Made by a program: the position numbers and the translations under genes. From assembly GCA_902727895.1 (NCBI GenBank), contig CACVAP010000074.1, positions 1 to 64,000 on the forward strand: a stretch of 64,000 nucleotides of DNA, read 5' to 3'. The notes under the pieces are model-generated. The model was not told the DNA's origin. It worked only from the letters and a program-made list of their open reading frames with translations, and did no database searches. The stretch comes from an uncultured Sulfurovum sp. (GTDB lineage Bacteria; Campylobacterota; Campylobacteria; Campylobacterales; Sulfurovaceae). Shown piece after piece: positions 40-9,419 of the stretch; position 1 is the first letter of the stretch, and the number at the start of each line of letters is the position of its first letter.

Positions 40-881
40 ATGAGAAAAGTAGATAAATTTGAGAATACAAATGATGAGAATTTTAAGCGAGTAGTAGGCG
101 TAAAACGAGCTACATTTGAAGTAATGGTTATAGAGTACAAGAAGTCAGAAGAAAAGAGAAAAGAAAAGCATAAAATAGGAGGACGAAAGCCTAAATTATG
201 TGAAGAAGATAGAGTACTCTTTATGCTTGAATATTATCGAGAATATCGAACCTTATATCATATGGGGCTAGACTATGGAATAAGTGAAGGACAGGCATCA
301 AAAGTAGTCAGAGATGTAGAAAGTGTTCTAATCAAATCAGGTAAATTTTCGTTACCAAGTAAAAGGGTATTATATGAAGCTGATAGTCCTATAGAGTTTG
401 TGTTAATTGATGCAACTGAAAGCCCAATACAAAGACCCAAAAAAAGCAAAGGCGATACTATTCAGGGAAGAAGAAGCAACATACCTTAAAAGCACAGGTT
501 GTTATAGATCAAAACCATAGAATTATTTGTGTAAATACTACAAATGGGAAAGAGCATGATTTTTCTCTTTTTAAAAACTCTAGACTTGCTATTAACGAAA
601 CTATTCAAGTCAAGGTAGATTTAGGTTATCAAGGGATTCAAAAGTTCCATCTAAATAGTGAAATTCCAAAAAAATCTAGTAAGAATTATAAGCTAACTGA
701 TGAAGATAAGAAAGAGAATCAAGAGAAAGCTTCTAAACGTATTTTTGTCGAGCATATCAATGCTAAGATTAAAACTTTTCAAATACTTAAACAAAAATAC
801 CGTAATCGACGTAAACGCTATAATTTAAGAGTAAATCTTATTTGTGGCTTAATTAATTTTGATAGGAATATGATGCTTTGA
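40..881 (+). CDS. IS5-family transposase, joined by -1 frameshift
   Basis: DDE transposase that would cut and move the surrounding element. The first frame (40-489, 149 aa) has an N-terminal helix-turn-helix region (about residues 50-100, GGRKPKL then GISEGQASKVVRDVE) and the first catalytic Asp in LIDATESPIQRP. That frame then runs into unrelated residues and stops. The -1 frame is open from 420 to the stop at 879-881 and carries YYSGKKKQHTLKAQVV, the second Asp in VDLGYQG and the Glu in RIFVEHINAKIK. The switch point is the run of seven A at 439-445. The second frame has no start codon near its beginning, so it is probably expressed only by slippage. The alternative is a simple inactivating indel. 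The fused product would be about 280 aa, normal for the family. Confidence 0.85.
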
Positions 882-3343: not shown

Positions 3344-3712
3344 TTAATAAATATTAAAACAACTACAGCTTATCTCTTTTTTATCTACAATCTGAAGAAA
3401 CTCAATCTCTGCAATATAACACTTTTTATTCTCTTTCAGTAAAGTAAACTCTTTTATAATCTGTTTTTCTGCTAATGGACTCTCAATATTTGTTTGCGTA
3501 GAAAGTCTAAATTTTGCAGTAGATTTAAAAAGAGATTCTCCTATAAAAAGTTTTTTTGAGGGCATAATTTGTTGTATACCTTCCTTTGCCTCGCGAATAC
3601 ACATACTATTTTGTTTCAATGAAAAAGCACTTGAATAATTATAAGTCGAATCCTTTGCACATCCCATAAGTGTCAACGCTATTAAGAGCTGACTAAAAGG
3701 CATCAATTTCAT
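3344..3712 (-). CDS. Small hypothetical lipoprotein
   Basis: 122 aa with a type II signal peptide and lipobox LTLMGC near residue 18, so probably anchored to a membrane and exposed to the periplasm. The mature part is mostly beta-prone with several cysteines, including a C-terminal CSCF. I do not recognise the family. Its start overlaps the end of the S41 protease gene by 20 bases in the same direction, so the two are very likely co-transcribed and translationally coupled. It may assist the protease; that is inference from position only. Confidence 0.7.
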   Translation of the reverse strand: MKLMPFSQLLIALTLMGCAKDSTYNYSSAFSLKQNSMCIREAKEGIQQIMPSKKLFIGESLFKSTAKFRLSTQTNIESPLAEKQIIKEFTLLKENKKCYIAEIEFLQIVDKKEISCSCFNIY

Positions 3713-5225
3713 ACTCTAATCCTTTTTGTGGAACTCTTTTATATTCAATACTAGGTGCTTCTTGCTTAGCTGTCTTTTGAACATTTATTGAACATTTATT
3801 ATTTCCCATAAAATATAATGTCTCTTTTAACATTGCTTCATTTTCATCTCCAAATGGATGGAGAATATCATCCTCTACAGTACAGCTAGGTGCAATTCCA
3901 TCAAAATAGTCGCCATAGCCTTCTGCATTAACACCTTGAAACTGTATTGGTGAAAGATGCTTTTCACAAAAAGTAAACCCACGCATACCTACAGGCTTAC
4001 CATGTGTTTTAGAACCAATTAGATGAACATCCAAAAATGGTGTTAATCCATTAATTACATACTCACTTGCAGATGCTGTATTTTCTGTTGTAATCACATA
4101 AACTCTATCTAGACTTAAATGATTTATCTCATCTGTGAACTTATAATCAAAGTTCCAATTTGTATATCTATCATTAAACTTAAGTGTATTAAAAACATTT
4201 TCATTACTCTTATCTCCACCAATTAAACTCGCAAGGTATTGGGCAATATGCAGTCGTCCTCCTCCATTGTATCTGAGATCAAGAATTAATTCTTCAATAC
4301 CATCTTTTTTAAACGCTTCAAATGTTTCTGATAACTCTGCTAATGAAGGCTCAATAAATTTATTAAAAACTAAATAACCAACTTTCTTTCCCTCTAACTC
4401 TAGCGTTTTACTTTCTATAACAGAGTGAGCTGTAACAATTGCTTTTTTAATACTCACCGTTGAGGTAGTTCCATTAGTCTTTACCTTAAATGTACGTTCA
4501 ACACCTACTTCTTCAGAACCAAGGATTGTATTCCAAAGGTCTTGCGCTGTTATCTCTTGAATCGTTTTTCCCTCTATCTCCAAAATTTCTGAGCCTCTTT
4601 CTATGCCTACTAGATGGGCAGGTGAATCTTTATAAATAAGGCTAATATAAATTTTTTCATCAAGAAGTCGCATCGAAAATCCAAATCCTAAATAAGTTCC
4701 TTCTTCAAAATAATTCGTATAACTACTTAAAGAACTAATATAACTCCATCTATCATATTTTTCATATTTTAAATCTTCTAACAGTGTCTCTGTATTAGTA
4801 TATTCATCATAGGCTAAATCATCTACATGTTCATACCATAAATAGGCATCTTTCATAATGCCGTAAACCAATTTATTTTGTCCCTTAAGTGAACAATCAT
4901 ATGCAACTGAAACTGTTCGTGTTAAGCTACTTTTATTACCTGATTTATCTTCAGCACTGTATGTTATGATATACGTTCCAATTTGAGTACTATCTACTTC
5001 CCCTGAAACTCCTACTCGCACACTACCGTCAACATTATCAACAGCAGTTGCTCCTTTATCAAGAAAAGTACTCCCAAAAAGAACTGTCATTTTACTTTCA
5101 CCATTAAGTTTTATGATAGGTGCTGTGGTATCACTACTACTTTTTGATTCACCACCACATCCAACTACTAAGAAGAAACCCATCATAAAAATAAATAACC
5201 TAAACAACTTTCTACATTTAACCAT
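3693..5225 (-). CDS. S41-family (C-terminal processing) peptidase, Ig-like N-terminus, lipoprotein
   Basis: 510-aa periplasmic serine protease. Order: lipoprotein signal with lipobox LVVGC (Cys 23); an Ig-like DUF5011 domain at about 35-108 (DNVDGSV then GTYIITYSAEDKSGN); a PDZ-like domain (FGFSMRLLDEKIYISLIYKD onward); then the S41 catalytic domain with LDLRYNGGG and the nucleophile region NTASASEYV, followed by SKTHGKPVG. Family members cleave the C-termini of exported proteins. The DUF5011 module probably serves as a binding or spacer domain. It is co-transcribed with the small lipoprotein downstream and divergent from apbE. Confidence 0.88.
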   Translation of the reverse strand: MVKCRKLFRLFIFMMGFFLVVGCGGESKSSSDTTAPIIKLNGESKMTVLFGSTFLDKGATAVDNVDGSVRVGVSGEVDSTQIGTYIITYSAEDKSGNKSSLTRTVSVAYDCSLKGQNKLVYGIMKDAYLWYEHVDDLAYDEYTNTETLLEDLKYEKYDRWSYISSLSSYTNYFEEGTYLGFGFSMRLLDEKIYISLIYKDSPAHLVGIERGSEILEIEGKTIQEITAQDLWNTILGSEEVGVERTFKVKTNGTTSTVSIKKAIVTAHSVIESKTLELEGKKVGYLVFNKFIEPSLAELSETFEAFKKDGIEELILDLRYNGGGRLHIAQYLASLIGGDKSNENVFNTLKFNDRYTNWNFDYKFTDEINHLSLDRVYVITTENTASASEYVINGLTPFLDVHLIGSKTHGKPVGMRGFTFCEKHLSPIQFQGVNAEGYGDYFDGIAPSCTVEDDILHPFGDENEAMLKETLYFMGNNKCSINVQKTAKQEAPSIEYKRVPQKGLEYEIDAF

Positions 5226-6282: not shown

Positions 6283-6939
6283 ATGACTTATAAATTTTTA
6301 CTTATTTTTACACTTTCTTTCTCACTACTAACAGCTACTGACTTTAAAGACATAAACCCAGCACCCAACAAAACAATGTTAGAAAATCAAAGCCATGCTA
6401 AAGACTGTACATCACCTGCACCTGCAAATGAAGATATATCTGAAAGTTTTAAATATGGATGCTTTTGTGGAGAAGACTACCCAAAGATGGATGCAAACGA
6501 AAGTAAAGACTTTAGAAGACTGCGTAAAAAGGAAAGAATAAAAGTTATAGAATCTTACTTTCTTGTAAAACCCTATGATGACATAGACGCAGTCTGTATG
6601 CAACATGACATTTGCTATCTTTACCGTGGTAAAAAAGCCAGAACTTGTAACCGTGCCATCTACAGTGAATTACGTGATTTAAGACATCAATTTAAAACAG
6701 AAAATGAACCAAAAAAAGATGAACAATGTTCACACCTAGCGACAGATATAGCTTCTGTTTTTCAAACTATCTTTGCTTCATCAGATGATAAAACAGGTTT
6801 TTTTGAATTTGGTTCCTTACTTTTTAATACTACACTGACCATCGCTGAAAAAACACTGGAAGAGTCCATAGACACCATTATAGATCAAGGGAAACGCTAC
6901 CCTAAAAAAGATGAAAAGTGCATCGTTAGTAAGATTTAG
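6283..6939 (+). CDS. Secreted phospholipase-A2-like protein
   Basis: 218 aa with an N-terminal signal peptide (cleavage near residue 18). Residues 58-63 read YGCFCG, like the calcium loop of secretory phospholipase A2. Residues 97-112 read PYDDIDAVCMQHDICY, matching the PLA2 active-site helix pattern P-D-D-C-HD-CY with catalytic His108 and Asp109. A further Cys (122) follows in the second helix region. A roughly 30-residue insertion separates loop and helix, and the second Gly of the calcium loop is replaced (GED). If active, it would hydrolyse the sn-2 acyl ester of phospholipids, in the periplasm or outside. Preceded by TGTTATACT at 6250-6258. The family call is by motif only. Confidence 0.65.
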   Translation: MTYKFLLIFTLSFSLLTATDFKDINPAPNKTMLENQSHAKDCTSPAPANEDISESFKYGCFCGEDYPKMDANESKDFRRLRKKERIKVIESYFLVKPYDDIDAVCMQHDICYLYRGKKARTCNRAIYSELRDLRHQFKTENEPKKDEQCSHLATDIASVFQTIFASSDDKTGFFEFGSLLFNTTLTIAEKTLEESIDTIIDQGKRYPKKDEKCIVSKI

Positions 6940-8936: not shown

Positions 8937-9419
8937 ATGAAGAAAATCACCATTCTATTAGCTTTACTACTTACTACATTTACCTTACTTAACGCAGCAG
9001 AGGCTGAAGTTAAAACATTTCCCGTTATAAGTGAAGAAGGCATGAAAAAATGTGCTACAAAAAGCGCTGATTCTAACGGTACAACTAAAAAATGTGACAG
9101 AAAAAAAGGTGTTGATTCTAATTGCACAACCAAAAAATGTGACAAAAAAATGAATGCAGATTCTAATTGTACAACTAAAAAATGTGATAAAAAAATGAAT
9201 GCAGATTCTAATTGTACAACCAAAAAATGTGATAAAAAGAAATGTACTGATACTAACTGTAAAGTTGAAAAATGTGATGGTACAAAATGTGTAACTCCAA
9301 AAGCAAGCAAGTGTGGAGAAGGTAAATGTGGTGGCGATAAAAACGCTTCAACTAAATGTGGTTCAGACAAACCTAAAGCTGAAAGCAAATGTGGTGAAGG
9401 TAAGTGTGGAGGAAAGTAA
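8937..9419 (+). CDS. Secreted Cys-rich tandem-repeat protein with CGEGKCGG motifs
   Basis: 160 aa. A clean Sec signal peptide (to about residue 20, LLNAAEA) is followed by four 15-residue repeats of the type ADSNCTTKKCDKKMN and a C-terminal part with two copies of CGEGKCGG. About one residue in seven of the mature protein is Cys, often followed by Gly or Asp. EGKCGG motifs are characteristic of HvfA-type precursors, in which Cys residues are modified by HvfB/HvfC to bind copper. No hvfB (DUF692/MNIO) or hvfC (DUF2063) gene is in this window. It could instead be an unmodified metal-binding periplasmic protein. Monocistronic by position. Confidence 0.65.
   Translation: MKKITILLALLLTTFTLLNAAEAEVKTFPVISEEGMKKCATKSADSNGTTKKCDRKKGVDSNCTTKKCDKKMNADSNCTTKKCDKKMNADSNCTTKKCDKKKCTDTNCKVEKCDGTKCVTPKASKCGEGKCGGDKNASTKCGSDKPKAESKCGEGKCGGK
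9066..9245 (+). repeat. Four 45-base in-frame tandem repeats
   Basis: Units begin at 9066, 9111, 9156 and 9201. Each encodes about x-DSN-x-TTKKC-D-KK. Units 2-4 differ at only a few bases, so they expanded recently and copy number is likely to vary among strains. A decayed fifth unit (TDTNCKVEKCD) follows. Confidence 0.85.

What the first reader, a model, noticed from the sequence alone, without database searches (positions are those of the whole stretch)
6283..6939. Secreted phospholipase-A2-like protein in a Campylobacterota chromosome
YGCFCG (58-63) and PYDDIDAVCMQHDICY (97-112) match the calcium loop and active-site helix of secretory PLA2, with His108-Asp109, plus a signal peptide. The insertion between loop and helix and the altered calcium loop are unusual. 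Secretory PLA2-type enzymes are scarce in bacteria, and I do not know one described from this group.
Basis: partly seen in the sequence, partly recalled or inferred. Interest (0 to 1): 0.65.

Follow-up and report, generated by a model that had tools for sequence, protein, structure and literature searches.

The report
Plant-like secreted phospholipase A2 in Sulfurovum
A sulfur bacterium of the Sulfurovum group carries an exported, cysteine-rich protein that looks like a working secreted phospholipase A2 of the plant and animal type, part of a small, patchy bacterial family for which I found no published description.

Summary
The 218-aa ORF at 6283-6939 (+) has a Sec-type signal sequence, YGCFCG at 58-63 and PYDDIDAVCMQHDICY at 97-112. 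It is a real gene: 23 further full-length homologues, dN/dS 0.12-0.26. They come from Sulfurovum-, Sulfurospirillum- and Sulfurimonas-type Campylobacterota plus one betaproteobacterial MAG. His108, Asp109, Asp99, Asp102 and six of the eight cysteines (including Cys62, Cys105, Cys111) are invariant.

Pfam's PF00068 is hit by all 15 close members (best E 3.7e-6), below the curated cut-off wherever scores are shown. Profile searches of PDB sequences return only PLA2s. A model of the mature protein (pLDDT 78; loop and active-site helices about 88-95) has rice secretory PLA2 as its best structural matches (Z 9.0-8.4; next unrelated 5.6). Unguided Foldseek is not significant.

Best reading: an exported, disulfide-stabilised, Ca2+-dependent His-Asp PLA2 of the sPLA2 superfamily, forming a subfamily of its own. 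It has an insert between Ca loop and helix, no Gly-Gly late in the loop, an 8-Cys pattern and a C-terminal hydrophobic extension. The presumed second catalytic Asp (Asp155) is kept in 20 of 24 homologues; plant enzymes also replace it. Activity is untested; role and final location are unknown.

The parts
6283..6939 (+). sPLA2-like exported protein, 218 aa, whole gene
   Evidence: ORF; PF00068 E 3.7e-5; homologues
6283..6336 (+). predicted Sec signal peptide, residues 1-18
   Evidence: Lys4, hydrophobic 5-16, LTA before residue 19; cleavage site inferred by eye
6454..6471 (+). first half of calcium loop, YGCFCG (58-63); Phe61, Gly63 and Asp65 would supply backbone oxygens
   Evidence: G59, F61, C62, G63 invariant in 24 homologues; the ligand roles are inferred from known sPLA2s
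6472..6567 (+). insert between loop and active-site helix (residues 64-95), with predicted helix 82-92
   Evidence: alignments A1/A2; shorter in Sulfurimonas and betaproteobacterial homologues; helix in both models
6571..6618 (+). active-site helix motif PYDDIDAVCMQHDICY (97-112), His108-Asp109
   Evidence: D99, I101, D102, C105, H108, D109, C111 invariant; model block pLDDT about 90-95
6646..6651 (+). Cys122-Asn123, start of the second helix; same CN position as in rice sPLA2
   Evidence: invariant in A1; aligned to rice PLA2 CNENL
6745..6747 (+). Asp155, candidate equivalent of catalytic Asp99
   Evidence: invariant in 15 close homologues, replaced by Ser/Ala/Gln in Sulfurimonas and betaproteobacterial ones
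6799..6879 (+). C-terminal hydrophobic helix (173-199), outside the PLA2-aligned core
   Evidence: helix in both models, low confidence (pLDDT about 51-67); hydrophobic across homologues

Best explanation
The gene encodes an exported, calcium-dependent phospholipase A2 of the secretory PLA2 superfamily, most like plant sPLA2 in fold. It would pass the inner membrane by the Sec route, fold with four disulfides and bind Ca2+ through the YGCFCG loop backbone and Asp109. His108 would activate a water that cuts the sn-2 ester of a phospholipid, oriented in most members by Asp155. Shown here: the motifs, their conservation, the profile relationship, the structural resemblance and the purifying selection. 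Inferred: Ca2+ binding, catalysis, disulfide pairing and the final location (periplasm, or outside through the type II secretion system whose secretin the genome has). The physiological role is probably attack on phospholipids outside the cytoplasm, for nutrient release, competition or envelope remodelling; none of these is favoured by the gene neighbourhood.
For: PF00068 matched by all 15 close members (best E 3.7e-6), by Sulfurospirillum-type L034 (3.1e-5) and by Sulfurimonas members (3e-4 to 2e-3). Every PDB sequence matched by the family profiles is a PLA2: 22 of 22 and 15 of 15, though the best E is only 0.016-0.032. Catalytic and structural residues are invariant: H108, D109, D99, D102, C62, C105, C111, C122, C149, C213. 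C42 and C60 are lost together in the four Sulfurimonas members (6 instead of 8 Cys), as a disulfide pair would be. Model of residues 36-218: best structural matches rice PLA2, 2wg8_C Z 9.0, rmsd 3.1 A, 95 of 107 residues, 24% identity, then 2wg9 8.6 and 2wg7 8.4; next unrelated 5.6. dN/dS 0.12-0.26. Type II GspD family over the cut-off in all 7 carrier genomes tested.
Against: The Pfam hit is below its gathering score (24.6 against 32.1 bits). Foldseek alone gives no significant PDB hit, and VIA-align only re-ranks Foldseek candidates; Z 9 for a mostly helical protein is moderate by the tool's own warning. The Gly-Gly of the animal calcium loop is absent (ED or KN, then YP). Asp155 is not conserved in the most distant members. 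No activity has been measured.
Confidence: 0.75

Rival explanations
1. A PLA2-fold protein that has lost or changed catalysis and works by binding lipid or protein, like the known non-enzymatic PLA2 homologues.
For: Gly32-Gly33 of the canonical loop replaced; insert next to the loop; Asp155 replaced by Ser/Ala/Gln in the distant members.
Against: His108 and Asp109, the residues usually lost in non-enzymatic homologues, are invariant in all 24 full-length sequences. Plant sPLA2s with Ser/Asn/His in place of Asp99 are active (PMC6635587). The loop position of Gly32 is mostly Asn, Asp or Gly, residues that tolerate the needed backbone shape (inference).
Confidence: 0.13
2. A competition toxin: a secreted PLA2 used against neighbouring bacteria or protists, perhaps with an immunity partner (a question of role, compatible with the best explanation).
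For: Exported enzyme with patchy distribution (17 of 175 genomes of the family; 3 of 397 in the phylum); T2SS secretin present.
Against: No constant neighbour that could be an immunity protein, no toxin delivery domain, no T6SS gene found adjacent; neighbours are mostly housekeeping genes that differ between lineages. It may still be an untargeted secreted enzyme.
Confidence: 0.12
3. Envelope phospholipid remodelling, a functional analogue of outer-membrane phospholipase A (PldA) (a question of role, compatible with the best explanation).
For: Signal peptide without lipobox, single copy, neighbours such as an acyltransferase (L021) and a PLD-like gene (L023) in two lineages. The betaproteobacterial homologue has a lipobox-like N-terminus.
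Against: The own genome also has a strong PldA (PF02253, E 5.1e-76), as does one other carrier (G172), so it is not a simple replacement; most carriers and most non-carriers of the genus lack PldA.
Confidence: 0.3
4. Chance motif in an unrelated small cysteine-rich protein.
For: Sub-threshold Pfam score; no significant Foldseek hit.
Against: Shuffles never give both motifs and shuffled controls hit no PLA2 family; conservation and profile hits; rice PLA2 on top of the structural ranking.
Confidence: 0.03

Closest known systems
Plant secretory PLA2, group XI (rice PLA2, PDB 2wg7/2wg8/2wg9)
   Same: Best structural match (Z 9.0-8.4, nearly the whole chain). Loop of YG-K-Y/F-CG type, like HG-N/H/K-FCG in the Sulfurimonas homologues. 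CCMVHDHC helix and a following Cys-Asn. Asp99 position variable, as in plants (PMC6635587).
   Different: 32-residue stretch between loop and helix, 8 Cys rather than the 12 typical of plants (my knowledge), C-terminal hydrophobic extension; 22-24% identity.
Animal sPLA2 groups I/II/X (PF00068)
   Same: YGC-F/Y-CG loop start, P-x-D-x-x-D-x-C-x-x-H-D-x-C-Y helix; only family hit by all close members.
   Different: No Gly32-Gly33, no second Cys of the CC pair, no recognisable C-terminal half; score below the gathering cut-off.
Bacterial group XIV PLA2 (Streptomyces violaceoruber) and TtaP
   Same: Bacterial, His-Asp PLA2 with a helical core (PMC11525133).
   Different: No group XIV Pfam match listed; those enzymes have two disulfides or none, and from my knowledge not the YGCxCG loop.
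Gram-positive 'phospholipase A2 family protein' (Vagococcus lutrae plasmid WP_202585847; phrog_11353; streptococcal SlaA type, named only)
   Same: YGNYCGPG loop and PIDQLDRYCMYHDLCY...G.....CD; hhalign probability 94%; Sulfurimonas homologue L041 hits phrog_11353 at 1.9e-6.
   Different: Short loop-helix spacing; far fewer cysteines; 26% identity over 80 residues.

Membership tests
Secretory PLA2 superfamily | C-x-x-H-D-x-C active-site helix preceded by D-x-x-D | tested here: met
   D99, D102, C105, H108, D109, C111 invariant in 24 sequences
Secretory PLA2 superfamily | Calcium loop beginning Y-G-x-x-C-G upstream of the helix | tested here: met
   YGCFCG at 58-63 here; HGxFCG in Sulfurimonas members
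Secretory PLA2 superfamily | PLA2 fold | tested here: inconclusive
   Rice PLA2 on top by VIA-align, Z 9.0; Foldseek alone not significant; loop and core helices about 88-95 pLDDT
Secretory PLA2 superfamily | Ca2+-dependent sn-2 hydrolysis | not testable with these tools
   Needs an enzyme assay
Pfam PF00068, animal-type PLA2 | Score over the curated gathering cut-off of 32.1 bits | tested here: not met
   24.6 bits; L034 24.9 bits and the Sulfurimonas members 19.0-21.7 bits; 0 of 397 phylum genomes over it
Pfam PF00068, animal-type PLA2 | Calcium loop G-x-G-G (Gly32-Gly33) | tested here: not met
   Here E64-D65-Y66; relatives have N, D, G, H, R or E at the Gly32 position
Pfam PF00068, animal-type PLA2 | Second catalytic Asp (Asp99) | tested here: inconclusive
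   Asp155 invariant in 15 close homologues, replaced in the Sulfurimonas and betaproteobacterial ones; the equivalence to Asp99 is inferred
Plant group XI sPLA2 | Twelve conserved cysteines (six disulfides) | tested here: not met
   8 Cys, or 6 in Sulfurimonas members
Bacterial group XIV PLA2 | Match to the prokaryotic PLA2 family models | tested here: not met
   No such Pfam or NCBIfam family listed up to E 1
Group XII PLA2 (PF06951) | Match over the curated cut-off | tested here: not met
   Weak hits only: E 0.004-0.036 in distant members, best in 4 of 15 close ones 0.013

The most novel reading that the evidence does not exclude
A separate group of secretory PLA2, found in free-living sulfur-oxidising Campylobacterota, that keeps a plant-like fold with its own 8-Cys pattern, a conserved loop-helix insert and a hydrophobic C-terminal helix for membrane contact. 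It could stand near the bacterial root of the eukaryotic sPLA2 families.
Probability: 0.3. Interest if true: 0.6.

Novelty: new variant of a known kind. Interest (0 to 1): 0.42.

Why it matters
If active, it extends animal/plant-type sPLA2 to a phylum where I found no published example. It also gives a stripped-down natural variant (8 or 6 Cys, altered Ca loop, variable second Asp) for testing which parts of the sPLA2 machinery are essential. It may inform where eukaryotic sPLA2 came from. The carrier bacteria are not known pathogens, so the interest is enzymological and evolutionary.

Tried and rejected
First model with 15 sequences and the signal peptide: loop low-confidence, no PLA2 in Foldseek or VIA lists; superseded by the second model. 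PF00068 search of 397 phylum genomes found only a cheA antisense artefact, L042, so Pfam's model misses this family at genome scale. Single-sequence scan of GTDB contigs found nothing; the alignment scan found 24. No homologue in phage records or viral contigs, so it is not visibly phage-borne; the plasmid search gave only Vagococcus. A search for a constant partner gene failed. Idea that it replaces PldA: rejected, both are in the own genome. Horizontal-transfer test by tree: too few well-supported branches, L037 on a branch of length 3. Promoter scan no better than shuffles. Viral fold library gave only weak hits, a few to parvoviral capsid proteins.

Full report
What is there. The ORF at 6283-6939 (+) encodes 218 aa. 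It starts behind a plausible ribosome-binding site, has a Sec-type signal sequence and no lipobox. Composition-preserving shuffles gave C..HD.C[YF] 10 times and YGC.CG twice in 200,000, never both. The gene has the base composition of its surroundings (GC 0.339 against 0.329 for the window) and is single-copy in a 2.96 Mb assembly. Its nearest named relatives are uncultured Sulfurovum MAGs.

Homologues. 17 of 175 genomes of the same family have it (own genome included), at 39-67% identity for most matches and mostly in the same genus. A GTDB scan with the alignment gave 24 loci: Sulfurovum-type, Sulfurospirillum-type, three Sulfurimonas and one betaproteobacterial MAG. In even draws it is rare: 3 of 397 in the phylum, 10 of 399 in the order, one of those (L062) being a different PLA2-like protein. 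No homologue was seen in phages or viral contigs. Selection is purifying: dN/dS 0.12-0.26 over seven pairs (dS is near saturation in several pairs).

Conservation. In the 15 closest sequences all eight cysteines, Tyr58-Gly63, Asp99, Asp102, His108, Asp109 and Asp155 are invariant. With nine distant ones added, Gly59, Phe61, Cys62, Gly63, Pro67, Asp99, Ile101, Asp102, Cys105, His108, Asp109, Cys111, Gly116, Cys122, Cys149, Phe160, Pro207 and Cys213 remain. Four Sulfurimonas members have 6 Cys; Cys42 and Cys60 are the two missing, which suggests that they pair. Cys62-Cys105 corresponds to the classical Cys29-Cys45 (inference). Asp155, the candidate Asp99, becomes Ser/Ala in Sulfurimonas and Gln in the betaproteobacterium. 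Plant sPLA2s have Ser, Asn or His there and are reported to be active (PMC6635587).

Family relationship. PF00068 is the only Pfam family hit by all 15 close members (best E 3.7e-6), below the gathering score in the window protein (24.6 against 32.1 bits). Profiles of the family against PDB sequences match only PLA2s, 22 of 22 and 15 of 15, though weakly (best E 0.016 and 0.032). Four shuffled or reversed controls hit no PLA2 family. A Gram-positive plasmid 'phospholipase A2 family protein' is a distant relative by hhalign (94%), and the Sulfurimonas member L041 hits the same phage family as that protein, phrog_11353 (1.9e-6).

Structure. The second (residues 36-218, 26 sequences) reached pLDDT 78 and pTM 0.75, with the loop block at 88, the active-site helix blocks at about 90-95 and the Asp155 helix block at 93. 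VIA-align put the three rice sPLA2 entries first (Z 9.0, 8.6, 8.4; 94-96 residues; rmsd 3.1-3.4 A; 22-24% identity), 2.8 Z units above the next, unrelated row; bovine pancreatic PLA2 mutants came at Z 2.8. Foldseek alone reported nothing significant. I could not measure atom distances, so His-Asp-Ca2+ geometry is not shown. The aligned core is about residues 42-171; 173-199 is a hydrophobic stretch predicted helical at low confidence.

Neighbourhood. ApbE, DUF819 and DUF502 sit around the gene. DUF819 and DUF502 follow it in the three closest relatives too; ApbE precedes it in L019. Elsewhere neighbours differ: AcrB and ZnuA, PLD-like, DXP reductoisomerase, multicopper oxidase, SerA and others. 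One pattern recurs: a DsbD gene directly downstream in L025, L030, L031 and L035 (a small ORF on the other strand lies between in L031; one gene further in L034), and a thioredoxin-like gene adjacent in L036 and L041. By my count that is 4 of about 15 distinct contexts, 3 if the two DsbD contexts share an origin. Carrier genomes have 5-12 PF13899 matches each, so about 0.1 such adjacency would be expected. This was noticed after the fact, but it fits a disulfide-rich exported protein.

Secretion and role. All seven carrier genomes tested have a type II secretin over the family cut-off, so export to the outside is possible. Seawater Ca2+ (about 10 mM, my knowledge) would suffice for a calcium-dependent enzyme. 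The own genome also has PldA. Nutrient release, competition and envelope remodelling remain open; the rival confidences for the last two concern role and overlap with the best explanation.

Verdict. It is not filed under any numbered sPLA2 group. Enzyme activity is likely (0.75) but not shown.

Noticed in passing
window 8937-9419 (+): 160-aa exported protein with tandem SNCTTKKCDKK-type repeats and a KCGExKCG tail, matching the HvfA oxazolone/thioamide RiPP metallophore domain model over its cut-off, but followed by hisS rather than by modification genes.
   Followed up: partly
L025, L030, L031, L034, L035, L036, L041: DsbD or thioredoxin-like genes recur next to the PLA2 gene in several lineages, more than their genomic frequency predicts.
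   Followed up: partly
L062 1282-2355 (-): A different 358-aa protein in a Sulfurovaceae genome (G081) with NGCS...EACDEHDKCY...CNDKL, weakly like group XII PLA2 (E 0.0023): a second PLA2-like family in the same bacterial family.
   Followed up: partly
L017 1486-1749; L054/L061 1498-1608: Broken or fragmentary copies of the PLA2 gene in G015 and G752/G816, suggesting repeated loss.
   Followed up: no
window 3693-5225 (-): Lipoprotein-like S41 peptidase with PDZ domain and N-terminal bacterial Ig-like domain, next to a small exported Cys-containing protein without known family at 3344-3712.
   Followed up: no
window 40-489 (+): 149-aa ORF that looks by eye like the N-terminal part of a transposase, possibly an insertion-sequence fragment; not searched.
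   Followed up: no
L037 5980-6621 (+): Betaproteobacterial MAG homologue with a lipobox-like N-terminus (LSGC), so that member may be membrane-anchored; none found in 99 relatives of its genome.
   Followed up: partly
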